This document shows positions 5,098 to 31,955 of a stretch of 39,315 nucleotides of DNA, in pieces (within the stretch, counting starts at the first letter, position 1; each line of letters starts with the position of its first letter). Source of the stretch: Paracoccaceae bacterium (GTDB taxonomy: Bacteria; Pseudomonadota; Alphaproteobacteria; Rhodobacterales; Rhodobacteraceae). The stretch is from assembly GCA_902633655.1 (NCBI GenBank), contig CACPHA010000011.1, forward strand, positions 1 to 39,315, given 5' to 3'. The position numbers and the translations under genes were made by a program. The notes below the pieces were generated by a model. That model saw nothing but the letters and a program-made list of their open reading frames with translations. It did no database searches and was not told the DNA's origin.

Positions 5098-5790
5098 ATG
5101 AAGATTAACTCAATCAGATCAATACGTCGAACTGAGCTTTCTAAGGCAGCTTTTGAGGCAGTGGTTCAATTTGGGTTACGAGGAACAACACTTGATCGGG
5201 TAGGTGATATTGCCGGGGTCTCCAAGGGCGTTGTTCTTCACCATTTTAAAGACAAGAGTAATTTACTAGAAGCTGTTTTTCGGCGCTCAAACTCAATTTT
5301 GAGTGAGTCAGTCGTTGAGCTGTACCGATATGCAGAATCTTCACACGAACGTTTATGGTGCGTAATAATCGCCAACTTTGCATCTGTAATATTTAATAAG
5401 CGAGTATGTCAGGCTTGGGTTTCATTAATTTCAGAGGTACCCCATAATAAACAATGTCAGAGAATTCAAATTGCCTGCAACGCGCGTATTCAAAGTAATT
5501 TGACCTATTCGTTGAAGAATTTTCTTGGAAACCAGGATGCAAAAGACGCAGCTCGTCACTTAGGGACGCTGATTGATGGAATATGGGTAAGAAGCGGACT
5601 ACTTGTAGATCCGGTTGATAGTTCAAGGGCAATTTCCGAAATACAATTTGCAGTAAGTAAGATTATCCCCAACGGTGCAATCAGCCAGGAGAAGCATATA
5701 ATAGCCCGAGAAAAAATCGAGAGCATAGCTTCCATAGTTCTAGGCTCCAGAGCCTTCCAAGAAAAATTGCTTAAAGTAATCAGTAAATAG
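5098..5790 (+). CDS. betI: TetR-family transcriptional regulator, BetI-like
   Basis: N-terminal HTH AAFEAVVQFGLRGTTLDRVGDIAGVSKGVVLHHFKDKSNLLEAVFR; C-terminal half ARHLGTLIDGIWVRSGLL typical of BetI. Confidence 0.85.
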   Translation: MKINSIRSIRRTELSKAAFEAVVQFGLRGTTLDRVGDIAGVSKGVVLHHFKDKSNLLEAVFRRSNSILSESVVELYRYAESSHERLWCVIIANFASVIFNKRVCQAWVSLISEVPHNKQCQRIQIACNARIQSNLTYSLKNFLGNQDAKDAARHLGTLIDGIWVRSGLLVDPVDSSRAISEIQFAVSKIIPNGAISQEKHIIAREKIESIASIVLGSRAFQEKLLKVISK

Positions 5791-6018
5791 CGCCGCCAAA
5801 GCTATAACTTAATTTAAAATAGTATTGGCACGAAATCTCAAGGCATAGAGATTAATGCGGTGATCCCAACACACTTATAAACCGGCCTCCTTTTTGTGAA
5901 AACGTGAGTTCTTGACTAACAAATAATTTTGCGGATCTATTTGATTTAAAATTTATCTACTTGTTTTAATTGTCAGAATAATTCAGCATAAACGACATAG
6001 TTTGAAAGGAAAAACCAT

Positions 6019-7254
6019 TTGACGAAGATCCAGGAGATGCCGGCCGTAGCGCGAGGCTTCATATCAAATCTTGAATTAAATGTACCAAAGCATCCGGCTT
6101 GGACCTTGCCCAAACCAGCTGGAAAAAGACGTGTATCGATTGTTTCCACTGCGGCTATTTCGAAACGCGGAGACAAACCCTTTTCTTGGCTTGCCCGAGA
6201 TCACAGGATAATAAATAAAAGTGACCGAGATCTCGTTATGACACATGTGGCGGTGGAATTCGACCGCTCCGCGTGGCAGCAAGATTTAAATGTTATTTTC
6301 CCTATCGATCGCCTTAATGAAATGGCCGATGATGGAGAAATTGGCTCCGTTGCAGAGGAGCACTATTCCTTTATGGGAGCAGCCGACCCAGTCACAATGG
6401 AAAAATCTGCTCGACAGGTTGCAAGTAAAATGAAAATTGAAGGAGTAGACACCGTTTTTCTGATACCCATATGACCGTTTTGCACGCGCGCCGTGTGCGG
6501 GCTCGCTCATTATTTTGAAGAAGAAGGTTTAGCAACAGTTCTTGTGGGATTTGTGAGAGAACAGATTGAGAAAATGGTGCCCCCACGCGCACTGTTTTTA
6601 GATTTTCCTATGGGCCGGGGAATGGGAAAACCAAATGATCCAGACTTCCAAAAACGGGTAATTCGCTCGGCCTTCGAGTTACTCGATAAAAAGATTGGCC
6701 CAGTGCTTAAGAATTTTCCTGAAGTAATTCCCGTTCGGAGAGGGCGTATGGGATATGCGCTTCCACCAGAACTTGTCTTAACTAAGAGTGACGTTGGCGA
6801 TATTGCAAGAGTCTTGTCAGATGTGACTAATGAGATTGAAGAGCTACGCCCAGCTTATGACAAAGCCGTTGCGTGCAGAGGGCGAACAACGGTTGGAGCT
6901 AGTGAGCTGTCCATAGAAAGCTTCGTTCCATTTATTGGGGAGTTTTTAAGTGGTCATGTACCCCAAAGCCCCAGAAAAGGATTACCAGCCATACCGCTTC
7001 TTAAATTAGTGGTTGAAGACTTAGAGGCCTATTATACCGAGACACGCACACATCGCGATGGGATTGATGATCTGGAACTGATGGGTAAATGGTTCTGGGA
7101 GGAGACCAAAGCCGGCCACTTGCTTTTACTCCTTGAAGCAGTTTCGGTCGCATCAGAAAACAAAATTTTGCTACAAATTGTTGAAATGTCTTTGATGGCA
7201 CCAAGGTTCTGGTCGGAAGGCCCACTACCGGGGACATCTGCAGCTGGCTGGTAA
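6019..7254 (+). CDS. Selenocysteine-containing glycine/sarcosine/betaine/D-proline reductase B-family protein (PrdB/GrdB-like), Sec at codon 152 encoded by TGA 6472-6474
   Basis: Track ORFs 6019..6474 and 6493..7254 share a frame. Readthrough of the TGA gives ...KIEGVDTVFLIPI-U-PFCTRAVCGLAHYFEEEGLATVLVGF..., a UxxC motif. Upstream block DLNVIFPIDRLNEMADDGEIGSVAEEHYSFMG matches the PrdB-like pattern. TTG start at 6019 preceded by GAAAGGA. selA, selB and tRNA-Sec lie just downstream. Confidence 0.92.
6475..6501 (+). promoter_or_regulatory. Candidate bacterial SECIS stem-loop directly 3' of the Sec UGA
   Basis: GCACGCG (6482-6488), loop CGC (6489-6491), CGTGTGC (6492-6498): 7 pairs including one G.U, extendable by three T.G pairs (6479-6481/6499-6501); apical loop 15-17 nt after the UGA. 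Confidence 0.65.
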
Positions 7255-7474: not shown

Positions 7475-8541
7475 ATGTCAAATTTTCCGTCTCTCACAAG
7501 TAGGGCAACATCAGCAGGCTGCGCAGCCAAGATTTCGCAGGCAGACCTTTCAAAAGCGCTGGCGTACTTGCCAAAGGCAGATGATCCAAATCTAATTGTG
7601 GACCACACAGGATCTGATGATGCGGCAGTACACCGCCTCTCCGATGATTTAGCATTAGTGAAAACCGTGGATGTTTTTCCACCCATCGTTGATGACACGT
7701 TTGATTATGGCCAAATAGCAGCCACCAGCGCATTAAGCTTTGTTGGTTGGCAGGTTGAAGTTTTAGGCGTAAGCCAGCTTGGAGCGGTTTTGCGAGGTGC
7801 GGCACATGTTTGTGGTCAAGCGGGCATTAAAATTGCAGGAGGCCATTCAATAGTTGATAATGAGCCAAAATTCGGTCTATTTGTAACTGGCTTGGTGCAT
7901 CCCAAAAATATCATCAGTAATTCAGGAGCTTCACCCGGCGATTTTTTGGTTTTAACCAAAAAAATAAGTACAGATATTTTAACGACTGCAGTAAAAAAAG
8001 GAAAATTGGCAAAAAACGGTCTTAACGAAGCGCTTGTATCTATGACCAATCTTAATGCCGTAGCAGCCCAAGCGATGCTCAAATAAAAGATTAAAGCTGA
8101 AACAGATGTCACGGGCTTTGGTCTGCTTGGCCATCTTGGAAGTATGCTAAGGGCATCCTCTGTTAATCGTCGTAAAATACTTGGTGCCCGCTTGTCTTTT
8201 CAAACATACCAATTTTTTAAGGCGTAGAAGGGCTTTGCCCCTTGGGAACTCGAAGAAATCTTGAAAATGCAGCTCCTCTTACCACATTTGATTCCAATTT
8301 GAATGACAGAAAACAACTCTTACTAGCAGATGCGCAGACTTCCGGTGGATTGCTAATGGCAGTCGCCCAAAACCGCCTTAAGAAACTACTTAATGAAATG
8401 GAAATAAATAAAGTTGGACCTTGCGCCGTGATTGGCCAAGTTACCAAATCAAAACGCCCAGCTAGCATATACATTGGGCCAGAGCTGGCCGAAGATTTAC
8501 CACCAAGATCAAATCAAGCCACGATAACGTGTTGTGGTTAA
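7475..8541 (+). pseudogene. selD: Degenerate selenide, water dikinase (selenophosphate synthetase)
   Basis: SelD-like pieces SAGCAAKIS...DDAAVHRL...AATSALS...GQAGIKIAGGHSI (7475-8086), then TDVTGFGLLGHLGSMLRASS after an in-frame TAA at 8084-8086, then a frame change and TRRNLENAAPLTTFDSNLNDRKQLLLADAQTSGGLLMAVA (track ORF 8242..8541). The motif expected between SALS and VGWQV is missing. Confidence 0.85.
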
Positions 8542-8556
8542 GAAGATTAAAATAGT

Positions 8557-8652
8557 TGGCGAAAGAGAGTGGGAGTCGAACCCACCAGAGACGTGGTACG
8601 CCCCTCACTAGATTTGAAGTCTAGGCGCCCCACCGGGGTGCGATCCTCTTCC
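8557..8652 (-). tRNA. selC: tRNA-Sec, anticodon TCA
   Basis: Minus strand GGAAGAGGATCGCACCCCGGTGGGGCGCCTAGACTTCAAATCTAGTGAGGGGCGTACCACGTCTCTGGTGGGTTCGACTCCCACTCTCTTTCGCCA: 8-bp acceptor GGAAGAGG/TCTCTTTC, anticodon stem CTAGA/TCTAG with TCA (8615-8617), long variable arm, T-arm GTGGGTTCGACTCCCAC, encoded CCA. Confidence 0.97.
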
Positions 8653-8676: not shown

Positions 8677-10584
8677 TCATAGACGGGGTATTGAGCCACG
8701 AATGCGACGATGATCGCCTACACGTTCAGTAAATCCTACATGATCAAAATACTCTAAGACAGAAATCACAAAATTTCTGCCCATATTAACTTCATCCCGA
8801 TACTTAGCTGTCGTAAATAGACCGTCAGCAGATGTACAAGCCAGTTGTTGCGCGCTGCCTTTAAGTTTTATAATCAAACTCGAAGGCACGTAGCGATTTT
8901 TCTCCAGCATTACAATTTCCCCTAGTTTTACACCCATTTTCAAAGATTTTTCCAGTAACTTCACTTCAACGCCGATTTCTTTAGCCACCTCGTATAGGCT
9001 AGAGGGACTGCCAAAATCCGGCGCTAGAAGAGTTTGTGCAAGTGCTAAAATAGACCGGTCGTGCTCCGATACATATATATCATGCGAGTGGAGATGAAAC
9101 CGATTGCCCCGTGCGCCCAAAATCCTTTCAAAAACCATAAATTTGAGGGCTGTCTCAAGCGTATCTGCATCGATAGGTATTTTGAGCAATATCTGTAAAT
9201 CATTGACGCTTGCCCCTAAAAGGCTCGGTTTCAATTTGTGAAAACTGGCTAAACATGCCATAATGTTATTCAATAATCTTTGCCATTGAATTTCGGAAAA
9301 AATCCTTCTTGTTGGCAAATTTCCAACACACCTCAGACCAAGCGAAGCGGCGAGCGCAGTAATTTGTGGGGTTGGAAGGTTGTGCGATACCGAAAATAGC
9401 TTTAAGGAAACGCCAATTTTACTTGTCTTTGCCAACGATAGGAGTCTATCGCAAGTGGTCTCGCCATTCATGGAATTTAGAATTTCCATCCTCATGGCCC
9501 GTGCGCGACCTCGTTTAGGCGAAAAAGGATCTATTACGCTTCCACCTGCTATCGTACGTTGCGCAGATGTATCTCGAAGAACAAAACGGTCTCCGTGAAC
9601 AACAAAAACATCACGTGGCAGTACCAGTTGAGCCAGGTTAGTAGTACCCGCTTTGATGTGACCACCACGCAAAACAGCTACGCGCACAGGGAGATGGTCG
9701 GCTCCAATATGAAGGTGCATTTGCGTCCAATGTTTCAATGAACTAGTTTCAGTCTCTAAGACGTGCAAATTCACATCGACCCGCCTTGTTGGAACGTTAA
9801 GACTAGATTCAGCCAGCCATGCACCACGCTTTATAGACCGCTCGCTTACGCCACGCCCTACGATATTCAACGCGCAGCGTTCACCAGCTTTTGCTTCATT
9901 ACGTATTTGATTATAAACTCTGATCTCACGGACGCGTACTGTTGACCCATCATTCAAAAGTGTTAAGATCTCAGATGTGCAAAGTTTGCCAGAAAATACT
10001 GTACCAGTCACTACCAAGCCAACGCCTTTGAGCCCGAAAGCCCTGTCAATTGCCATTCGGAAATAACCATCTGTCGACTTGGGTTTAATAGATTTAGCGC
10101 GCTGGTTAAGGGCTGCGTTCAGCTTATCAATCCCAATATTCTTGGGAGCGCAAACGGGAAAGACAGAAACATGCCCATCTTTTTTAAAAAGACTACTAAC
10201 CTGCATATTTACTTCTGAGATGCGATCTGGTGACACCCGGTCGATCTTGGTCAGCGCTACCATAATCTGACTTATACCCAGCATTTCTAGTATAGCATAG
10301 TGTTCGCGCGTCTGCCGCATAATACCATCATCGGCAGCCACTACTAAAAGACCCAAATCAATTCCTGCAACACCCGCTAACATATTGCGGATGAACTTCT
10401 CGTGCCCAGGCACATCAACAAATGCAAGAATTTCACCATTGTGCATAGTTTTATAGGCAAATCCCAGATCTAACGTTAATCCACGGGCCTTTTCCTCCGG
10501 TAGCCGGTCAGTATCTATTCCCGTCAGAGCTTTGATCAATTCAGTCTTACCGTGGTCGACATGCCCTGCCGTTGCAACAATCAT
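8677..10584 (-). CDS. selB: Selenocysteine-specific translation elongation factor SelB
   Basis: [59 protein letters not shown], with C-terminal winged-helix region. Confidence 0.97.
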
Positions 10585-11975
10585 TCGAAATTTAAACTTT
10601 TAAGGTTATTAATAAATTGGTTTTGGTCCTCGAGACAACGAAGGTCAAACCATAACGCGCCTTTGTTAATACGGCCAATAACCGGAATCTGTAGATCCCG
10701 AAAAGCACTTGAAAGGCTTTCAAGTGCTTTGCCTGTTCGACGCTGACTGGCTGTGGTAATTTTCAGCCCTACGCTAGCCAGTCGTTTAATGGGAAGCGCG
10801 CCACTACCAATCTGACTTTCGACAGGTTCTATACTAACCACGAATCCAGGGCATTGAGCTTGTACCTTAGAAATAAGGCAATTGGCCATTCGCCTGATGT
10901 CCTCTTCTTTTCGAATTAACAGACGAAGCGTTGGCAGCTCTGCTGCCAACTTTTGAGGATTTTCGTAGAGCCTAAGTACTGCCTGAAGTGCTGCTAAGGT
11001 CATTTTATCGGCTCGCATTGCACGGATTAATGGATTGCTCTTAATCCTTTTAACCAAGTCATCCCGCCCTGCAATGATACCACACTGAGGCCCTCCTAGA
11101 AGTTTATCACCACTAAATGTCACAAGGTCTGCACCAGCCTTAAGAGTATCAGTTACAGTTTTCTCTTCTGGCAAATTATAGCTCTTAAGATCAATCAAAT
11201 TGCCACTGCCCAAATCGCTAATCAGTGGTAGATCGTGACAATGAGCTATTTCGGCTAGCTGCTTTTCACTCACGCTGCTCTTAAAGCCTTGGATTTCAAA
11301 ATTACTTGTATGGACTTTCATAAGTAATGCGGTTTTTGCGTTAATCGCCATTTCAAAGTCTTTTTCATGTGTTCGATTAGTTGTACCCACCTCTACCAGC
11401 TTACAACCCGCATGCGCCATGATATCAGGCATACGAAATGATCCACCAATCTCAACCAATTCACCGCGAGACACAGGAACCTCCTTGCGCCGGGCAAGGC
11501 TGCTTAAGGTAACTAAAACCGCTGCTGCATTGTTATTTACGACAATTGCGCGTTCTGAACCTGTCAATTGACAAATCAAATCTTCGCAATGCTTATTGCG
11601 ATCTCCACGCTGCCCAGTCTTTAAGTCCATTTCAAGGTTGGTTGGCCGAGCTGCGGCTTCTATAACCGCATCAATGGCCGCCAAAGGTAAGCTCGCCCTT
11701 CCAAGGTTTGTGTGAAGTACAACACCTGTAAGGTTAAATAATGGCCGCAATGATGGCTGAAAAGCGTTGAATGTTTCTTCTCGAAGATCCTTGATAAGAG
11801 TTTTGTATTCTGTCGATTTGCCAGTCAAAAGTGAGCTTCGAGCCTTTTGGATAACATTTTGGGCACATCTGGTTACAACTCGCGCACCATAATCATCGAC
11901 AAGAGACACAATTTTAGGATCGTTCAAAATACGATTTATAGACGGTATCTTATTCAAGCTATTAATTTTATTCAT
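10581..11975 (-). CDS. selA: L-seryl-tRNA(Sec) selenium transferase SelA
   Basis: [42 protein letters not shown]-lysine motif [19 protein letters not shown]; 4-bp overlap with selB. Confidence 0.97.
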
Positions 11976-14266: not shown

Positions 14267-15418
14267 ATGGAAAATCTGCCAACTTTGGTCGTTAATAAAA
14301 TAAAAAAAGTTTATATTGGGAGTAATGAACTTTCCCCATTTCACGATTGCTATGCCGATGACAACTTAATTTTACGTTTGGCCGCCGGACGGTATTTTGC
14401 CCATTACGCTGGCGAGAATACAGAAACTTGTTATTGGGCTCTTCGAAAGACAGCAGCACTTTATGACGTTCCAGAGCGGCCAATCGAAATTTCAGGAAAA
14501 GATGTCGTACCATTTTTGGAAAAGATTCTTACACGTACCGTTGCAGACATGAACGTAGGACGGGGGCGCTATACCCTAGCTTGCACGCATTTTGGTGGTA
14601 TTTTTATGGACGGTATTGTTTTTCGGTTAGCAGTTGATAAGTTCTGGTTTGTTCAGCCAGACGGGGATTTAAAGACTTGGCTCCTGGCCCACCAAGAAGG
14701 TTATAGGGTAAATATAACTGATCCAGGTTCTCGCGTACTACAGATACAAGGACCTAATTCATTCCAAATTTTGAGTGATTTAACGGATGGAGCACTTGAC
14801 CATCAATTTGGATATTTTCATTCCGGATTTTTCACGCTGGATAACCAAGAAGTTTATATTTCAAGAACAGGTTGGAGTGGCGAACTTGGTTATGAAATTT
14901 ACACGCAAGGCACTACAACCAATTGCACTCGTCTCTGGAAACGCATTTGTGATATCGGATTTAATCACGGGATGGTATTCAGCAGTATGCAATCATTAAA
15001 CATACGTCGCATCGAAGCTGGCATTTTTGATAGTGGAAGCGATTTCGATGATTCCTTAACACCTTACGAAGTTGGCTTAATTAAATTTGTTGATTTCAGA
15101 AATAAGAGCTTCAAAGGGCGAGATGCGTTGTTAAGCTCACCTAAAAGTATCCGCTTATATGGCATAATCTGCAAGGAGTCCGTCCCAGCCGCAGGAGACA
15201 AAATCTTTTACGAAGGAACTCAAGTGGGAGAGGTAACTACAGGAGCGTGGTCACCTTATTTTAAGGCCGGCATAGGATATGTACTTCTTCACAATCCCAA
15301 CGAATGGGCCCGAAGATCTTTACTGAAAAAAAATGGGACAGACCAAACTTTTCCAATCGAAATTACATCATTGCCCTTCTATGACAAAGACAAGATCATT
15401 CCACGAAAAATTACATAA
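14267..15418 (+). CDS. Aminomethyltransferase (GcvT) family protein
   Basis: GRGRYTLACTHFGGIFMDGIVFRLAVDKFWFVQPDG, VLQIQGPNSFQIL, SRTGWSGELGYEIY, fold typical of GcvT/DmdA-like folate-dependent enzymes. Confidence 0.85.
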   Translation: MENLPTLVVNKIKKVYIGSNELSPFHDCYADDNLILRLAAGRYFAHYAGENTETCYWALRKTAALYDVPERPIEISGKDVVPFLEKILTRTVADMNVGRGRYTLACTHFGGIFMDGIVFRLAVDKFWFVQPDGDLKTWLLAHQEGYRVNITDPGSRVLQIQGPNSFQILSDLTDGALDHQFGYFHSGFFTLDNQEVYISRTGWSGELGYEIYTQGTTTNCTRLWKRICDIGFNHGMVFSSMQSLNIRRIEAGIFDSGSDFDDSLTPYEVGLIKFVDFRNKSFKGRDALLSSPKSIRLYGIICKESVPAAGDKIFYEGTQVGEVTTGAWSPYFKAGIGYVLLHNPNEWARRSLLKKNGTDQTFPIEITSLPFYDKDKIIPRKIT

Positions 15419-24143: not shown

Positions 24144-25286
24144 CTAAGTACGGAACATCGGGGGACGAGCCTCCGTCCAAGCTCCATTGTTTTTGGCAGA
24201 GTAAACAGCTGCATAGACTGCGGCCATTGAACGAACTCCATCCTCTGCCAATGGCAAGGCGTCTCTTGGTTTCCCTCGAATTGCATCAGCCAGATCACAG
24301 TACATATTTGCCACTGCTAATGGGAAACCCTCCGGATGCGCGATTGCAGCTCGACTTAAACGTTCGGCTTCTGTGTGAAGGCCATTCTCGCCCTTCTCAA
24401 TTATCTGCGTTCTGCCACCAAGAGGAGTGTAGATTAATTGGTTTGGATGTTCAGAAAACCATCTTAGGCCTCCAATTTCTCCAAAAATCTGCAGTTCAAA
24501 TCCATGTTGACGACCGATTGCAACTGACGACGTCCAAAGACGACCTACCGTCCCTTTGGTCAGTCTAAAATTGACCATTGCATCATCTTCAAGCTGCCGG
24601 CTTGCAATAGTTGACGCAAAATCAGCAGACAAGTTTTTGATCTGATCATCACAAACAAAACTTGCCATATGCAGTGCATGAATACCGCAATCTGCGAATT
24701 GACCAGAGACGCCGGCCATTTCAGGGTCATAACGCCAACGTACGCGGGGATTATCGGCGTCAGCAGCGTTGCCATGGTGACCATGACTAAAATTCGTTAC
24801 GACTAATCGAATTTTACCAAGTTCCTTTGCCCTTACCATAGCTCGAGCTTGACGCACCATTGGATAAGCAGAGTAGCAATAATTCACAGAGCAAATTTTT
24901 CCATATTGTTTAGCAATTCGTGTAATTTCTTCTCCTTCTTCCACAGTCATCGTCATAGGCTTTTCACAAAGCACATTAAATCCAGCCTCCAGGAAAGCCT
25001 TCGTTATCTCAAAGTGAGTACTGTTTGGTGTTGCAACAGTTACAAGATCTAAGCGATCTGTCCGATCCTTTTCACAAGCAAGCATCTCTTTCCAATCTCC
25101 ATATGCTCGAGATGCATTTATGCCTAATTTTCGAGCATACTTCCGACCTGCTTCAGGCCTATGATCCAAAGCTCCGGCTACAAAATCAAAAAGGCCATCT
25201 GCTTGTGCACCTAGTCGATGCGCATGACCAATCTGACTTCTTTCACCGCCACCAATCATTCCCCAGTTTAATTTTGCCATATTCAA
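24144..25286 (-). CDS. Gfo/Idh/MocA-family oxidoreductase
   Basis: WGMIGGGERSQIGHAHRLGAQ, VLCEKPMTMTVEEGEEI, GVSGQFADCGIHALHMASFV. Confidence 0.9.
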   Translation of the reverse strand: MNMAKLNWGMIGGGERSQIGHAHRLGAQADGLFDFVAGALDHRPEAGRKYARKLGINASRAYGDWKEMLACEKDRTDRLDLVTVATPNSTHFEITKAFLEAGFNVLCEKPMTMTVEEGEEITRIAKQYGKICSVNYCYSAYPMVRQARAMVRAKELGKIRLVVTNFSHGHHGNAADADNPRVRWRYDPEMAGVSGQFADCGIHALHMASFVCDDQIKNLSADFASTIASRQLEDDAMVNFRLTKGTVGRLWTSSVAIGRQHGFELQIFGEIGGLRWFSEHPNQLIYTPLGGRTQIIEKGENGLHTEAERLSRAAIAHPEGFPLAVANMYCDLADAIRGKPRDALPLAEDGVRSMAAVYAAVYSAKNNGAWTEARPPMFRT

Positions 25287-25292
25287 TCACCC

Positions 25293-26186
25293 TCAGACAA
25301 AACCAATTCTTTCCAAATATTCACGATTTTTTTGGGCATCGCCAAAACTATCAGGATTAAGTGTTGGATCACAATCCTGTTCAATTGTGCACCAACCTTC
25401 AAACCCTTTTTCAAGCAACAAATGGCGTACAGCTGGAAGATCAACTTCGCCCTCTTCTAAAGTACAAAAAATACCCATTCCACATGCGTCATAGAAACCA
25501 GTCCGGTTTTCGATCACTTTCGATTTCACTTTTGGGTCAGTTGATTTAAAGTGCACATAAGTGATCCTATCCATATACCGCTTCATAAAATCCACTGGAT
25601 CGAAACCGGCATAGGTACAATGACCAGTATCAAGGCATAGTTTCATTAGATCAGGATCAACTTCTTCCAACAGCCGTTCAACTTCAGGCTCAAAATCCAT
25701 AAAACCTCCCGCATGGGGGTGGAGTTCAGGGATAAGTCCGTACTCGTCAGCGCCCATTTTTGCAATAGAAACAAGACGGTCACGATAGGACGTCCACTCA
25801 TTTTCATCCATTTGCTCTGCTTCATTTCCCCGACCCGCAGTGGGCGCGCGACGTGGAGAAATGGAGTCAATCAGCACGAAATGATCTGCGCCGTGCGCCG
25901 TAAGTGCTTCGCAGGTACGCTTTGCACCGTCTAAAACGTCCTCCCACTTATCAGGATCATGAAAGGGCCGAAAGACAACACCACCAATCAGCTCCAGGCC
26001 AAATTCATCAAGGGCTTCTGAAAATTCCACCGGATCCTCGGGCATAAATCCGACTGGACCCAGTTCGATACCCTTATAACCAGCTGCTGAACATTCGCTA
26101 AGCACCTTGCGCCAACTCGGGTTCCGTGGATCATCTGCAAACTCAACTCCCCATGAGCAAGGAGCATTTCCAATCCTGATTGACAT
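25293..26186 (-). CDS. TIM-barrel sugar isomerase/dehydratase (IolE/IolI/MocC-like)
   Basis: MSIRIGNAPCSWGVEF...YKGIELGPVGFMP...LIPELHPHAGGFMD...KLCLDTGHCTYAGFDP...GWCTIEQDCDPT; ATG at 26186 preferred over track start. Confidence 0.85.
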   Translation of the reverse strand: MSIRIGNAPCSWGVEFADDPRNPSWRKVLSECSAAGYKGIELGPVGFMPEDPVEFSEALDEFGLELIGGVVFRPFHDPDKWEDVLDGAKRTCEALTAHGADHFVLIDSISPRRAPTAGRGNEAEQMDENEWTSYRDRLVSIAKMGADEYGLIPELHPHAGGFMDFEPEVERLLEEVDPDLMKLCLDTGHCTYAGFDPVDFMKRYMDRITYVHFKSTDPKVKSKVIENRTGFYDACGMGIFCTLEEGEVDLPAVRHLLLEKGFEGWCTIEQDCDPTLNPDSFGDAQKNREYLERIGFV

Positions 26187-26196
26187 ACGGTTCTCC

Positions 26197-27300
26197 TCAA
26201 ACTTGACGCACAGATGTCCATGATCCACTTTTAGCAGAGCTGTGAACAGCATCTATTACTTCGGCAACTGCAAGCCCATCACGAAATGTCGGCCATACTG
26301 CCTGCTCTGTCTCAATGGCATTCAGGAAGTCCTTGGCTTCAATGATAATTGTATCCTGATAACCAGTGCCATGTCCCGGGCCCAGACAAAAGGATTCGTA
26401 ATCTGGGTGTTGTGGACCCGCCAGTATTTTTTGAAATCCCTGAACCGAAGTGTCGCTAGAGGGCTTATAAAGCCAAAGTGCATTTTGATCTTCTTGATCA
26501 AACCTAATTGCGCCTTTCGTCCCATATATGTCATAAGCGTACCCCATTTTTCGTCCCATTGCGATCCGGCTAGAATAAATGTGCCCCATCACTCCACTTG
26601 AAAACCGACACATAATAGAAGCATGATCATCATTCGTTACTTTGCCACCAGGTCGACCTCTATGGACTGTTTCAAGATCTGAAGAGACCTTTTCAATCGG
26701 TCCCATCAAAGCAAGCGCAGCATTAATAGGGTGTGGAGCAAGATCACCCATATTTCCGTTAGCAAGACCTTCACAGCGCCACGTAAACGGGTCTTCCGGT
26801 CGGGCCAAGAAATCTTCTTCGTGCATACCGCGGAACCATGTAATATCACCAATTTCTCCACGTTCTATCAATTGACGAGCAAATTGACTCACCGGCGTTC
26901 GTATGTAATTAAACCCGACCATATTGGTAACATTGGCACTTTCAGCTGCATCAACCATCGCTCGAGCATCTTCTAAAGTCGATGCCAATGGTTTTTCACA
27001 AAGCACAGGTTTATCTAGTGATAGTGCAGCTTCTGCAATCGCTCGATGGGTATCTTGAGGAGAAGCAATTACCACGGCTTCCACCTTTGGATCTGAAACC
27101 AGCTGTTCCCAATTCAATGCTGCGTTTTCAAAGCCATATTTTGTTTTATAAACCTCTGCGCTTTTAATTGACGTTGCGGCGACTGATTGAAGCTTTGGGC
27201 GTAATTTCGTATTGAAAATTGCAGCAACAGCAGACATCGCCACTGCATGTGCTTTACCCATATATCCACCGCCAACGATGCCTATTCCAATATCCGTCAC
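26197..27300 (-). CDS. Gfo/Idh/MocA-family oxidoreductase
   Basis: IGIVGGGYMGKAHAVAMSAV, VLCEKPLASTLEDARAMV, MGDLAPHPINAALALMGPI. Confidence 0.9.
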   Translation of the reverse strand: MTDIGIGIVGGGYMGKAHAVAMSAVAAIFNTKLRPKLQSVAATSIKSAEVYKTKYGFENAALNWEQLVSDPKVEAVVIASPQDTHRAIAEAALSLDKPVLCEKPLASTLEDARAMVDAAESANVTNMVGFNYIRTPVSQFARQLIERGEIGDITWFRGMHEEDFLARPEDPFTWRCEGLANGNMGDLAPHPINAALALMGPIEKVSSDLETVHRGRPGGKVTNDDHASIMCRFSSGVMGHIYSSRIAMGRKMGYAYDIYGTKGAIRFDQEDQNALWLYKPSSDTSVQGFQKILAGPQHPDYESFCLGPGHGTGYQDTIIIEAKDFLNAIETEQAVWPTFRDGLAVAEVIDAVHSSAKSGSWTSVRQV

Positions 27301-27329
27301 ACCCTAAGCACCCCAAGCTCAAATAATAT

Positions 27330-27343
27330 TGCAACCGGTTGCA
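27330..27343. promoter_or_regulatory. Candidate LacI-family operator in the divergent iol promoter region
   Basis: Perfect 14-bp palindrome TGCAACCGGTTGCA centred on CG, between divergent 26197..27300(-) and iolD(+); a LacI-family gene lies at 32029. Confidence 0.7.
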
Positions 27344-27425
27344 GAAACTGTAAACATGATGGCAATTGTCTGCAAGAGACAATAAATTTGTTTGAAATTT
27401 GTCTTATCCGGTTTTTGGGAGAAAT

Positions 27426-29294
27426 ATGGTGGGTGTTTCTTATATTCGTTTGACCACAGCGCAAGCTTTAATCAAATGGTTAGCCAATCAATTCATCGAA
27501 ATTGGTGGAAAAGAGCAACGTATTTGTGGTGGAGGTTTTGGAATTTTTGGACATGGAAATGTCACCTGCCTGGGTGAGGCATTAAATACCCACAAGGAAG
27601 AATTACCCCTTTATCGTGGACAAAACGAGCAAAGTATGGGTTTTGCAGCAGCTGGCTATTCCAAACAGTGGCTTAGGCAGCGATTTATGTTTTGTACTGC
27701 GTCCGCGGGACCTGGAACATTGAACCTTGTCACAGCTTCGGCACTCGGGCATGCGAACCGTTTACCGATGCTTTTTTTATGCGGAGACACCTTTCTAACT
27801 CGACTTCCAGATCCTGTATTACAACAGATGGAAAATTTCAACGATCCAACCTTTGGAGCAAATGATGCTTTTAAGCCAATTACTCGTTATTGGGATCGTA
27901 TCACACATCCTGCCCAGATCATTCAATCCCTGCCAAATGCATTAGCTACTCTACTTGATCCAGCTGACTGCGGTCCCGCCTTCCTTGGCTTGCCACAAGA
28001 TGTACAAGGTTGGTATTATGACTATCCTAATACTTTTTTTGAAAGAAGATTGCATCGAATTCGTAGGCAATCTCCAGATCCTAAAGAAATTTTGGATGCT
28101 AGATACATCTTGAAATCCGCAAGACGCCCAATGATCATTGCAGGCGGCGGTGTTCAGTATTCATGCGCTACAGAAGAGCTCAATGATTTTGCAGTCAAAC
28201 ACCAAATTCCAGTCGTTGAAACCATTGCAGGGCGAGCAAATATGCTGCATCAAGATGCGTTCAACTGTGGGCCAATTGGGGTAACTGGTTCAAATTCCGC
28301 CAATAAACTTGCGGAAAAAGCCGATGTAATCCTTGCTGTAGGGACACGACTTCAAGATTTCACAACGGGTTCTTGGGCGGCGTTTGACCATGCGGCGAAA
28401 TTCGTATCTATCAACGCAGGTCGCTTTGACGCCGGCAAGCACCAATCTCAACCCGTTGTTGGTGATGCAAAAGTATCTTTAAAGGCGTTGTCAGCATCGC
28501 TTGATTATAGTGCGCCTAAGGAATGGGTTTCTTTTGCGCATGAAGAGAGCAAAAAATGGGATGCCTATGTGGCGGCCAATGTATCTTATGGCCATAATAA
28601 GCCAAATTCCTATGCACAGGCGATCGGCGTGGTGAACGCACTTTGTGACAGCCGAGATAGGGTTGTTGCGGCGGCAGGCGGGCTTCCAGCTGAAATCACG
28701 GCTAATTGGCGTACGCTTGACCTTTGCACAGTAGACGTTGAGTTTGGTTTCTCCTGTATGGGATATGAAATCGCAGGGGCATGGGGCGCCCGTATAGCAC
28801 AAGCTGAGAGAGAACCAGAGAGAGATACTATTTCTTTCTGCGGCGATGGTTCTTACCTCATGCTGAATTCCGACATTTATTCTTCTGTCCTCAGTCAGAA
28901 GAAACTCATTATCCTTGTGCTTGATAATGGTGGCTTTGCGGTTATCAACAAGCTACAGAATAACACCGGAAACGATAGCTTTAACAATCTTTTTATTGAT
29001 TGCCCCACGATCAAAGAGGCCTTTTCTGTGGATTTTGCAGCCCATTCGGCTTCCATGGGTGCATTATCAGAAAAAGTGACTTCTCCAGAAGAATTAAAAG
29101 AGGCTTTTAGGCGTGCAAAAGCTAGCCATAAAACCTATGTCATTGTGATGGATGTAGATGCTCATGAAGGATGGACAGACGAGGGTCACGCTTGGTGGGA
29201 GGTTGGAACTCCGTCAATCAGCGACAACGAAAAAGTGCGTCAAGGTCACGCGGATGTCGAAGCAGGACGGTTAAAGCAGCGTAGAGGTGTTTAA
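27426..29294 (+). CDS. iolD: 3D-(3,5/4)-trihydroxycyclohexane-1,2-dione acylhydrolase (ThDP-dependent) IolD
   Basis: FGIFGHGNVTCLGEAL, YRGQNEQSMGFAAAGYSKQ, ThDP-binding region FCGDGSYLMLNSDIYSSVLSQKKLIILVLDNGGFAVINKLQ. Confidence 0.95.
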   Translation: MVGVSYIRLTTAQALIKWLANQFIEIGGKEQRICGGGFGIFGHGNVTCLGEALNTHKEELPLYRGQNEQSMGFAAAGYSKQWLRQRFMFCTASAGPGTLNLVTASALGHANRLPMLFLCGDTFLTRLPDPVLQQMENFNDPTFGANDAFKPITRYWDRITHPAQIIQSLPNALATLLDPADCGPAFLGLPQDVQGWYYDYPNTFFERRLHRIRRQSPDPKEILDARYILKSARRPMIIAGGGVQYSCATEELNDFAVKHQIPVVETIAGRANMLHQDAFNCGPIGVTGSNSANKLAEKADVILAVGTRLQDFTTGSWAAFDHAAKFVSINAGRFDAGKHQSQPVVGDAKVSLKALSASLDYSAPKEWVSFAHEESKKWDAYVAANVSYGHNKPNSYAQAIGVVNALCDSRDRVVAAAGGLPAEITANWRTLDLCTVDVEFGFSCMGYEIAGAWGARIAQAEREPERDTISFCGDGSYLMLNSDIYSSVLSQKKLIILVLDNGGFAVINKLQNNTGNDSFNNLFIDCPTIKEAFSVDFAAHSASMGALSEKVTSPEELKEAFRRAKASHKTYVIVMDVDAHEGWTDEGHAWWEVGTPSISDNEKVRQGHADVEAGRLKQRRGV

Positions 29295-30271
29295 TGGATC
29301 TAATCAAAAATATCAAGGAAAAGCCATTTGTCGTTTTTGGACGGGCCGGGATTGATTTGTTTGCTGATCCGGTCGGCACATCGGCAGAAGTAGCCGAAAA
29401 CTTTCGCTCCGATATTGGCGGATCATCGGCCAATATTTGTGTCGGCCTTTGTAAACTAGGGCATTCCTCCTCATTGGTCACTTCTGTTTCAGATGATGTA
29501 GTGGGTCGGTTCTGTTTTAAACGCCTTCAGCACTACGGCGTTGATACTAAATACATTAAAACGATTAGTGGGGAATATCGCACCTCTCTTGCACTCTATG
29601 AAAGCAAGATTGAAGATTTTCAGCTTTGTATCTATCGAAACAATGCCGTGGACTTTCAGGTTACTAATGCAGATGTAGATTTTGTCGATTATCAGGCCTT
29701 TGGCGCATTGATCACGGCGGGTACTGTATTTGCGAACGAGCCATCTCGTGGGTCAACGTTTCGCGCATTCGAGCATGCGAAGAAGGCCGGACTACCTATA
29801 ATCTTTGATATTGATTACAGACCGTACTCTTGGCCTTCTGCGAAAGCTGCTTCAGATATCCTAACACGCGCCGGGGAGGCAAGTGACCTCATAGTTGGAA
29901 ATGACGAAGAATTTGGTTTTATGGCTGGGAGCTATGACGGGGGTCTAGAAAAAGCTCGTGACCTTGCTACTCAAGGAAAGCTAGTAATCTTTAAAATGGG
30001 TGAGAAGGGAGCAATCACCTTTGCGGATGGTAAAGAGATTCGTACAGGAATTTATCCGGTCACTATTCTAAAACCCAATGGTGCGGGTGATAGTTTTCTG
30101 GCAGGGTTGTTGGCGTCTCTCGCAAATGGATTTGATTTAAAACAGGCCGTTTTGCGCGGATCTGCTTGCGCTTCTATAGTAGTCGCAAATCCCGGCTGTG
30201 CGCCTGCCATTCCGGATCACTCAGAATTAGAGGCCTTTTTACAAACCCATGACGGCCCAACCCCCGTTTAA
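29294..30271 (+). CDS. iolC: 5-dehydro-2-deoxygluconokinase IolC (PfkB family)
   Basis: FGRAGIDLFADPVGTSAEVAENFRSDIGGSSANICVGLCKLG, NGAGDSFLAGLLASL. Confidence 0.93.
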   Translation: MDLIKNIKEKPFVVFGRAGIDLFADPVGTSAEVAENFRSDIGGSSANICVGLCKLGHSSSLVTSVSDDVVGRFCFKRLQHYGVDTKYIKTISGEYRTSLALYESKIEDFQLCIYRNNAVDFQVTNADVDFVDYQAFGALITAGTVFANEPSRGSTFRAFEHAKKAGLPIIFDIDYRPYSWPSAKAASDILTRAGEASDLIVGNDEEFGFMAGSYDGGLEKARDLATQGKLVIFKMGEKGAITFADGKEIRTGIYPVTILKPNGAGDSFLAGLLASLANGFDLKQAVLRGSACASIVVANPGCAPAIPDHSELEAFLQTHDGPTPV

Positions 30272-30285
30272 TTAGGAGTAAAAGG

Positions 30286-31122
30286 ATGCATATTGCACCG
30301 TATGACAATAAAAACAAGCCAGTTGTAGATATTGACGACCCCTCAGTTCCGTTAAATTACTTCAATATTGTGAAGCTCCAAGAAGGGCAGGTTTTTAAAT
30401 ATCAAGTCCCCGGGTACGAAACTTGTATAGTACCTGCCACCGGGAGTGTTGATGTGGATATCGAAGGTGACATCTTTATGGGTCTTGGTAATCGCGGTGA
30501 CGACGTATGGCATGGCGAACCCGAGGGTGTCTACGTTCCTTCAGGAGCAAAAGTAACATTGACTTGTATATCAGCGACAACTGAAACTTTTGTCGCTGGC
30601 GCGAAATACGGTAAAGTTTTAGATCCTTTTGAGGTGCGTGAGCATGACCTTGTCCAATATGGAAGTGATGATACTAAAACGCATCGAAAAATTAAACACA
30701 TTCTGGGTCAAAAGCAGCATGATAAAGTTGGTCGTTTACTGGTGAGTGAATTATTTACTGTTGGGCAAGGCGGCTGGTCAGGTTTTCCATCCCACAAACA
30801 TGATACCAACCGTTTGCCAGATGAAACACGTCATGATGAAACCTATAATTTTCGCTTTAAGCCTAAGTGGGGATCAGGCCTTCAAATGTTACAAAGGACC
30901 GATAACAAACCGGGTGATGCCTATCACATTATAGAAGGGTCGACTATCTGTATTGATAATGGGTACCACCCTTGCGCTGTTCTGCCAGGCTATGAGATGT
31001 ATTATTTCACAATTCTTGGAGGACTAACACAGCGATCTTTGGTACAGTATTTTCAACCGACACATGCCTACCAGGTGGAAACCATCCCTGGCATAAAAGA
31101 CATGATTGCAAAATTTAGATGA
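30286..31122 (+). CDS. iolB: 5-deoxy-glucuronate isomerase IolB
   Basis: GRLLVSELFTVGQGGWSGFPSHKHDTNRLPDETRHDETYNFRFKP. Confidence 0.93.
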   Translation: MHIAPYDNKNKPVVDIDDPSVPLNYFNIVKLQEGQVFKYQVPGYETCIVPATGSVDVDIEGDIFMGLGNRGDDVWHGEPEGVYVPSGAKVTLTCISATTETFVAGAKYGKVLDPFEVREHDLVQYGSDDTKTHRKIKHILGQKQHDKVGRLLVSELFTVGQGGWSGFPSHKHDTNRLPDETRHDETYNFRFKPKWGSGLQMLQRTDNKPGDAYHIIEGSTICIDNGYHPCAVLPGYEMYYFTILGGLTQRSLVQYFQPTHAYQVETIPGIKDMIAKFR

Positions 31123-31955
31123 GTGTCGCCACTCTTAGTGATGTTCTACAACCAGCCTTGGCAAAGGGTTACGCAGTCGCAGGCATGGTTACACTAGGCT
31201 GGGAAGATATGCGGGCGTTTGTGGAGGCCGCAGAAGAAGAAAACGCACCTTTGATTTTGCAATCAGGGCCCAGTTGTAGAGAGCACACACCCCTTCCTAT
31301 TTTGGGTAAAATGTTCCGTTTTCTTGCCGAGCAGGCCTCAGTACCAGTAGTCGCTCACCTCGACCATGGTTATACGCATGGCGAATGCAAAATGGCATTA
31401 GAAAGCGGCTTTACCTCTTTAATGTTCGATGGATCGCGTAAACCACTTGCCCAAAATATTGACGAAACTGCAGCTATTTCTGAAATGGCCCATAAAGCGG
31501 GAATTTCCTGCGAGGGTGAAATTGGATTTGTTGGATATGTGAATGGAGAAATTTCGAATGGAACAAATCCGATCGAGGCCGCAAAATTTGCCCGCGAGAC
31601 AGGAGTTGATGCGCTTGCGGTATCTGTCGGCAACGTACATCTACAACAGAAAAAAGAGGGTGGATTGGACGAAGACCTAATTTACAAAATTGGCGCCTGC
31701 ACAAATTTGCCGTTAGTTATTCACGGTGGCTCAGGAGTGCCCGTAGAACAACGCAAACATCTTTCGCGCTATAGTTCCATCTGCAAATTCAATATTGGTA
31801 CTGAGCTTCGCATGGCATTTGGGTCAGCACTAAAAGATGCTGTTTCTCTTGATCCATTTCGCTTCGATCGCGTTCAAATTCTTAAGGATACCCATCATCC
31901 GGTCAAAATGGCGGCACGGGAAGTTATTCAGACACTTTTCACTAATTATGCTTAA
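31119..31955 (+). CDS. Class II fructose-bisphosphate aldolase family protein (IolJ-like)
   Basis: VPVVAHLDHGYTHGECKMALESGFTSLMFDGSRKPLAQNI, LVIHGGSGVP, SICKFNIGTELRMAF; 4-bp overlap with iolB. Confidence 0.88.
   Translation: MSVATLSDVLQPALAKGYAVAGMVTLGWEDMRAFVEAAEEENAPLILQSGPSCREHTPLPILGKMFRFLAEQASVPVVAHLDHGYTHGECKMALESGFTSLMFDGSRKPLAQNIDETAAISEMAHKAGISCEGEIGFVGYVNGEISNGTNPIEAAKFARETGVDALAVSVGNVHLQQKKEGGLDEDLIYKIGACTNLPLVIHGGSGVPVEQRKHLSRYSSICKFNIGTELRMAFGSALKDAVSLDPFRFDRVQILKDTHHPVKMAAREVIQTLFTNYA

What the first reader, a model, noticed from the sequence alone, without database searches (positions are those of the whole stretch)
6019..7254. Hidden selenoprotein: PrdB/GrdB-family reductase split by an in-frame Sec TGA
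Seen: two track ORFs lie in one frame separated by a single TGA (6472-6474). Readthrough gives DTVFLIPI-U-PFC-TRAV, a UxxC redox motif where the D-proline/glycine/betaine reductase B family carries Sec. tRNA-Sec, selB and selA lie within 6 kb. Established: bacterial PrdB and GrdB/GrdH are Sec proteins of anaerobic Stickland-type reductases. Here the gene sits among aerobic-style genes (P450, PhyH dioxygenase, desaturase), and no PrdA, GrdA, GrdC/D or GrdE gene is visible in the window. The protein (about 411 aa) has a C-terminal segment of roughly 150 aa that I cannot match to the short PrdB subunit. Inference: a stand-alone Sec reductase/thiol-redox enzyme acting on a betaine- or proline-like compound. 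Related Sec proteins may already be known from marine Proteobacteria, so novelty lies mainly in function and context.
Basis: partly seen in the sequence, partly recalled or inferred. Interest (0 to 1): 0.88.

Follow-up and report, generated by a model that had tools for sequence, protein, structure and literature searches.

The report
PrdB-like selenoprotein lacking PrdA partner
This marine bacterial gene is read through a UGA 'stop' codon to make a selenium-containing enzyme related to, but distinct from, a subunit of the anaerobic enzyme D-proline reductase; selenoproteins of this type have been counted in seawater since 2005, but what this lineage does, apparently without the usual partner subunit, is still unknown.

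Summary
Window 6019-7254 is one 411-codon gene interrupted by a single in-frame TGA (6472-6474). All 19 close relatives in which the site is covered, plus more than 30 distant full-length ones, carry TGA at that exact place. Cys homologues exist. The codons after the TGA form a covarying SECIS-type hairpin, and tRNA-Sec, selB and selA lie beside it. It is a real selenoprotein (about 0.97).

The family call needs correction. It is homologous to PrdB: the Sec column coincides with true PrdB. But it scores 102 bits against the PrdB cut-off of 300, carries an extra conserved helical domain of about 160-180 residues, and lives in genomes with no detectable PrdA/GrdE (0 of 18, with a working positive control). 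It is therefore a PrdA-independent PrdB-like selenoenzyme. Selenium metabolism is unlikely as its role, because 12 of 14 genomes found with the Cys form lack SelB.

The betaine/proline substrate guess is not supported: that context is local to this genome. Neighbours elsewhere (glutathione transferase-like genes, CoA-transferases, molybdenum hydroxylases) point to catabolic redox chemistry.

Sec 'PrdB' was already reported as the third most abundant Sargasso Sea selenoprotein family. New here are the split from PrdB, the domain, the hosts and the partner-free state. Unexpectedly, selD in this window is a pseudogene.

The parts
6019..7254 (+). PrdB-like selenoprotein gene, 411 codons, TTG start (relatives start at the same codon with ATG, GTG or TTG), one internal UGA
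6004..6010 (+). Shine-Dalgarno-like GAAAGGA 8 nt before the TTG start (inference from sequence)
6472..6474 (+). UGA codon for selenocysteine (residue 152); Cys in homologues L026-L031, L034, L114-L119
6472..6483 (+). UxxC (U-P-F-C) active-site motif; same column as Sec in annotated PrdB (U-G-T-C)
6487..6501 (+). Core of the SECIS-type hairpin: stem 6487-6491/6497-6501 with loop CGUGU; G.G mismatch in the stem in this lineage; loop starts 20 nt after the first base of UGA
6049..6687 (+). PrdB-homologous region (residues 11-223), matches TIGR04483 below its cut-off
6721..7206 (+). C-terminal all-helical domain (residues about 235-396), conserved in the long form, no Pfam/NCBIfam match, confident AlphaFold model
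5098..5790 (+). BetI-like TetR-family regulator upstream; not conserved beside relatives of the gene
7475..8541 (+). selD pseudogene: 42-nt in-frame deletion, TAA at 8083-8085, frameshift near 8190-8230, in-frame TAG and a 5-codon gap, relative to intact selD of L001
8557..8652 (-). tRNA-Sec gene (selC), Rfam RF01852 69 bits
8677..10584 (-). selB, Sec-specific elongation factor, intact
10581..11975 (-). selA, L-seryl-tRNA(Sec) selenium transferase, intact

Best explanation
Window 6019-7254 encodes a PrdB-like selenoenzyme that works without the pyruvoyl partner PrdA. (1) UGA 6472-6474 is decoded as Sec by the neighbouring SelA/SelB/tRNA-Sec through the hairpin just downstream (shown by sequence evidence; about 0.97). 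(2) Sec152 and Cys155 form a UxxC redox pair at the N-terminus of a helix, as in PrdB: Sec is the attacking nucleophile and Cys resolves the intermediate (inferred from homology; about 0.8). (3) Since carrier genomes have no PrdA/GrdE, the long form, with its own helical C-terminal domain, reduces a small electrophilic organic substrate by itself, in aerobic catabolism or detoxification (inference; about 0.5). (4) The Se-S bond is re-reduced by glutathione or another thiol, perhaps through the GST-like protein encoded next to several members (weak inference; about 0.3). The substrate is unknown.
For: Same-position TGA in all close relatives and more than 30 distant full-length ones. Cys in short and long homologues, the long Cys group nested inside the long Sec clade in trees. 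Synonymous-site constraint only after the UGA. Hairpin covariation: 41 double-changed cells, 0/500 shuffles, covariation score 0.389 against at most 0.164 when slid. selB and selA beside the gene in all marine-clade loci where the contig reaches, tRNA-Sec in every one. True PrdB aligns with Sec in the same column. PF09338 absent from 18 carrier genomes but found in two control plasmids. SelB over cut-off in 4/4 Sec hosts tested and in only 2/14 Cys-form hosts. GST-like genes 33-122 nt upstream in L002, L004, L081, L084, L087 and 1.5 kb away in L115 against about one GST per 240 kb.
Against: Nothing here shows catalysis or a substrate. The GST link comes from a few lineages, and the L002/L004 protein only just matches GST models. 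UxxD paralogues lack the resolving Cys. selD is broken in this genome and no other copy is in its 55%-complete assembly, so Sec supply in this organism is unproven. The hairpin in the window alone is not more stable than shuffles (z -0.9).
Confidence: 0.55

Rival explanations
1. It is a general thiol/selenol oxidoreductase or antioxidant enzyme acting on protein disulfides, glutathione conjugates or peroxides, not a C-N/C-X cleaving reductase.
For: UxxC motif; aerobic hosts; GST-like neighbours. Sargasso Sea selenoproteins are mostly thiol-dependent oxidoreductases (PMC1088965).
Against: Homology is to PrdB, not to thioredoxin-fold proteins. No solved structure resembles the confident model. 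Paralogues sit next to CoA-transferases, acyl-CoA dehydrogenases, enoyl-CoA hydratases and molybdenum hydroxylases, i.e. catabolic genes.
Confidence: 0.28
2. It is a true D-proline/betaine/glycine reductase subunit whose partners lie elsewhere in the genome (Stickland-type reduction).
For: Sequence homology and identical Sec column; betaine/choline genes in this window.
Against: PrdB score 101.9 against cut-off 300, GrdB/F/H far lower. PF09338 (PrdA/GrdE) absent in 18 carrier genomes including several at 93-100% completeness, with the positive control working. Extra C-terminal domain. Aerobic gene surroundings.
Confidence: 0.04
3. It works in selenium metabolism itself (e.g. selenium delivery to SelD), which is why it lies in the sel locus.
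For: Adjacent to selA, selB, selC and often selD in the marine-clade loci and in about ten other long-form loci.
Against: Cys forms occur in genomes without SelB (12 of 14); many Sec members lie away from sel genes; co-location is also expected for the selenoprotein that travels with its decoding kit.
Confidence: 0.08
4. The TGA is a true stop or a sequencing error, or the gene is a pseudogene.
For: The adjacent selD really is a pseudogene.
Against: Same TGA in dozens of independent genomes, Cys counterparts, purifying selection after the TGA, covarying hairpin, sel genes alongside.
Confidence: 0.02

Closest known systems
D-proline reductase subunit PrdB (TIGR04483; Terrisporobacter, Peptoclostridium, Enterococcus)
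   Same: About 29% identity over residues 9-228, Sec (Cys in Enterococcus) in the same column, UxxC motif, conserved H76, D89 and R190 region
   Different: 102 against 300-bit cut-off; no PrdA in carrier genomes; extra C-terminal helical domain; aerobic hosts; UPxCTRA instead of UGTCHRS
GrdB/GrdF/GrdH (PF07355; glycine, sarcosine, betaine reductase protein B)
   Same: Weak homology around the Sec site (32 bits to PF07355, above its cut-off)
   Different: GrdB is larger and has a pyruvoyl or other protein B partner plus GrdA, GrdC and GrdD; no PF09338 member found in carrier genomes
Sec 'proline reductase PrdB' family of Sargasso Sea and GOS metagenomes (PMC1088965, PMC2398784)
   Same: Marine, UxxC, PF07355; probably includes this clade
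   Different: Those papers took the D-proline reductase function from PrdB by name; no hosts, C-terminal domain, partner test or sel-locus linkage was found in the passages read. Their sequences could not be compared here
Alphaproteobacterial Cys 'glycine/sarcosine/betaine reductase selenoprotein B family protein' (RefSeq name; L124, L125)
   Same: PrdB-like core of about 210 residues with Cys at the Sec position
   Different: Short form without the C-terminal domain; mostly in organisms lacking SelB
Fluoroacetate reductase FarB/FarE (PMC10838667)
   Same: GrdB-family selenoprotein recruited to another C-X bond (C-F)
   Different: Anaerobic, two-component, GrdB-type

Membership tests
Bacterial selenoprotein | In-frame UGA conserved in homologues, with Cys counterparts | tested here: met
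Bacterial selenoprotein | SECIS hairpin shortly after UGA | tested here: met
   Synonymous constraint and covariation; single-sequence folding alone inconclusive
Bacterial selenoprotein | SelA, SelB and tRNA-Sec in the genome | tested here: met
Bacterial selenoprotein | Functional SelD | tested here: inconclusive
   selD in the window is a pseudogene, no other copy in the 55%-complete assembly; most relatives have intact selD
Bacterial selenoprotein | Se in the purified protein | not testable with these tools
   -
D-proline reductase PrdB | Score above the TIGR04483 equivalog cut-off (300 bits) | tested here: not met
   101.9 bits
D-proline reductase PrdB | Encoded with the pyruvoyl proprotein PrdA (PF09338) | tested here: not met
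   0 of 18 carrier genomes, positive in 2 control records
D-proline reductase PrdB | Sec at the UxxC column of PrdB | tested here: met
D-proline reductase PrdB | Length about 240 aa without C-terminal domain | tested here: not met
   411 aa; annotated PrdB proteins 238-242 codons
D-proline reductase PrdB | Reduces D-proline to 5-aminovalerate | not testable with these tools
   -
GrdB/GrdF/GrdH (protein B of glycine/sarcosine/betaine reductase) | Scores above NCBIfam cut-offs | tested here: not met
   28-47 bits against 65-800
PF07355 superfamily | Score above the Pfam gathering threshold | tested here: met
   32 bits against 22, but only residues 80-148

The most novel reading that the evidence does not exclude
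The abundant marine Sec 'PrdB' is a misnamed, large family of aerobic, partner-free selenoenzymes (homologues in 50 of 385 sampled alphaproteobacterial genomes, up to four per genome, including UxxD paralogues) that reductively cleave C-X bonds of activated catabolic intermediates such as CoA esters or glutathione adducts, and in many lineages it is the selenoprotein that keeps the Sec machinery in the genome.
Probability: 0.3. Interest if true: 0.8.

Novelty: new variant of a known kind. Interest (0 to 1): 0.52.

Why it matters
Sec-containing 'proline reductase' was the third most abundant selenoprotein family in the Sargasso Sea data and stayed prominent in later ocean surveys, named after an anaerobic Stickland enzyme. 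The data here show that a lineage of this kind in marine Alphaproteobacteria lacks the partner that D-proline reductase needs, carries an extra domain, and is locked to the selABC locus in culturable bacteria (Roseovarius). The question of what selenium does in aerobic ocean bacteria becomes testable with a deletion and an enzyme assay. Annotation pipelines also stop such genes at the UGA.

Tried and rejected
Betaine/proline substrate from context: rejected as unsupported, because the flanking genes are not conserved. Membership in PrdB or GrdB: rejected on score, length and missing PrdA/GrdE. The first two PF09338 searches had no positive control; repeated with plasmid records that carry prdA. 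Single-sequence RNA folding: uninformative (synonymous-shuffle tests mixed). Rfam: no SECIS family matched above chance near the UGA. Fold search of two AlphaFold models against the PDB: no match at E <= 0.001 even with mean pLDDT 87.9, so no functional hint. PDB sequence search: nothing convincing. FdhA: no full-length match with an internal TGA among the 17 genomes in the rows shown (output cut off), so Sec-FdhA does not obviously explain the sel genes, but I did not inventory all selenoproteins.

Full report
WHAT IS THERE. The frame 6019-7254 contains one internal stop, TGA at 6472-6474; read-through gives 411 aa. tRNA-Sec (8557-8652, -), selB (8677-10584, -) and selA (10581-11975, -) follow downstream on the opposite strand.

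IS IT A SELENOPROTEIN? A scan of GTDB contigs found 20 relatives. In all 19 where the site is covered, at 74-81% identity, the TGA is at the same codon and similarity continues to the C-terminus. Start codons vary (ATG, GTG, TTG) at one fixed position, often with a purine-rich site before it. A profile search over 385 alphaproteobacterial genomes found homologues in 50, with more than 30 full-length forms carrying TGA in place. Cys stands there in short homologues (NCPVC) and in three full-length ones (PVCPNC, L114-L116). In trees the long Cys group sits inside the long Sec clade.

THE SECIS. Codons 156-159 and 161, immediately after the UxxC motif, are invariant in all 19 gapless full-length sequences; none of 133 comparable 4-/6-fold codons outside residues 153-170 is. 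Across 53 distinct sequences, a 5-bp hairpin at a fixed distance, with loop CGUGN in nearly all, shows CG/GC, GC/AU and CG/UA double changes: 41 double-changed cells against 10 in shuffles (0 of 500 as high), covariation 0.389 against at most 0.164 for slid versions. Much of this rests on the difference between the long and short clades, so it is few evolutionary events; but the loop is shared and the distance fixed. The window itself has a G.G mismatch in this stem, and folding of the window alone is not unusual. dN is about 0.12-0.20 with saturated dS both before and after the TGA.

WHAT FAMILY? Pfam PF07355 is matched at 32 bits over a short stretch. The PrdB equivalog TIGR04483 is matched at 101.9 bits against a cut-off of 300; GrdB-type models are far below theirs. 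Annotated PrdB proteins from plasmids (L123, L126, L127) align with Sec/Cys in the same column (UGTC against UPFC), but end near residue 235 of the window protein. The remaining part is conserved throughout the long form (down to 35-42% identity), matches no Pfam or NCBIfam model, and is modelled as helical (mean pLDDT 87.9, pTM 0.89 for the whole chain). No solved structure matches at E <= 0.001.

PARTNERS. D-proline reductase needs the pyruvoyl proprotein PrdA (established: Kabisch 1999 and Bednarski 2001, as cited in PMC13188914 and PMC10838667). PF09338, which covers PrdA and GrdE, was not found in any of 18 carrier genomes, several 93-100% complete, while the same search found it in both control records. 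This excludes the normal D-proline, glycine or sarcosine reductase architecture as far as sequence search can.

NEIGHBOURHOOD. In the marine clade (window and L001-L019) every locus has tRNA-Sec, and selB and selA wherever the contig reaches; selD is adjacent in many, as a free gene or as an oxidoreductase-SelD fusion. About ten of the other long-form loci also lie near selA/selB. Recurrent neighbours: GST-like genes 33-122 nt upstream on the same strand (L002, L004, L081, L084, L087) and 1.5 kb away beside a Cys form (L115), against about one GST per 240 kb in ten genomes (158 matches in about 38 Mb); molybdenum hydroxylases; SDR enzymes; TauD dioxygenases beside long Cys forms; class III CoA-transferases beside most short Sec forms. 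The choline/betaine genes of this window recur only in part: L034 (short Cys form) has a ProX-like transporter and a DMGDH-like enzyme, L032 (Sec) a DMGDH-like enzyme; a GcvT-type gene lies within about 7 kb in window, L013, L016 and L019.

NOT SELENIUM METABOLISM. SelB above cut-off was found in 4 of 4 Sec hosts tested but in only 2 of 14 hosts from which the Cys form was taken, so the Cys form works where Sec is not made.

SELD. The window's selD has a 42-nt deletion, a TAA, a frameshift, a TAG and a 5-codon gap relative to L001, too many lesions for sequencing error. No other selD was found in the 55%-complete assembly. SAR116 relatives without adjacent selD carry fused versions elsewhere, so a trans copy is possible here but unproven. 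Whether this organism still makes Sec is open; the selenoprotein, selA and selB look intact.

HOW IT PROBABLY WORKS. Shown by sequence: UGA recoding signals, homology to PrdB, UxxC, absence of PF09338 partners in the genomes examined. Inferred: Sec attacks, Cys resolves, a thiol re-reduces. Speculative: substrate class and the role of the GST-like partner. A GrdB relative has been linked to C-F bond cleavage (PMC10838667), so the superfamily can take up new C-X bonds.

KNOWN OR NEW. Sec 'PrdB' with UxxC was reported with 42 genes in the Sargasso Sea (PMC1088965) and 235 Sec and 110 Cys forms in GOS (PMC2398784). [quoted passage not shown] In the literature searched I found no account of the long form, its domain, its sel linkage or its lack of PrdA; only open-access papers were searchable. 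I rate it a new variant of a known kind.

Noticed in passing
window 7475-8541: selD is a multiply broken pseudogene next to intact selA, selB, selC and an intact selenoprotein gene; no other selD found in the partial genome.
   Followed up: partly
L101:2564-3286, L102:15457-16092, L104:14101-14826: Paralogues with UGA conserved but the resolving Cys replaced by Asp (U-P-L-D): a Sec protein of this family without the second half of the UxxC pair.
   Followed up: partly
genomes G374, G389, G480, G488, G573, G650: Up to four PrdB-like genes per alphaproteobacterial genome, most with an in-frame TGA.
   Followed up: no
L097, L099-L105: Short-form Sec or Cys homologues are followed within a few hundred nt by a class III CoA-transferase, sometimes also with an acyl-CoA dehydrogenase nearby.
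   Followed up: partly
L003:11326-13527 and similar in L005, L006, L011, L018, L068, L081, L083, L084, L086, L087, L092: Oxidoreductase-SelD fusion occupies the selD place beside the selenoprotein gene, and where tested (L003, L018) scores above the SelD cut-off; it is probably the working SelD there.
   Followed up: partly
L032: Sec homologue at 35-37% identity with selABCD, tRNA 2-selenouridine synthase MnmH, a choline-kinase-like gene and a DMGDH-like gene in one cluster.
   Followed up: partly
L123 (Terrisporobacter glycolicus plasmid pTG1, 21 kb): Plasmid carrying prdCAB together with selD, selA and selB: proline reductase and most of its selenium kit on one small replicon; prdB plasmids of nearly the same size occur in several other Terrisporobacter.
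   Followed up: no
L016 and L019: Same locus order and close sequences in MAGs labelled Porticoccaceae and Opitutia: horizontal transfer or misbinning.
   Followed up: no
window 14267-15418: GcvT/DMSP-demethylase-like gene with relatives near the selenoprotein gene in L013, L016 and L019.
   Followed up: partly
window 24144-31955: ORFs resembling an inositol catabolism cluster (Gfo/Idh dehydrogenases, IolE-, IolD-, IolC- and IolB-like), by reading only.
   Followed up: no
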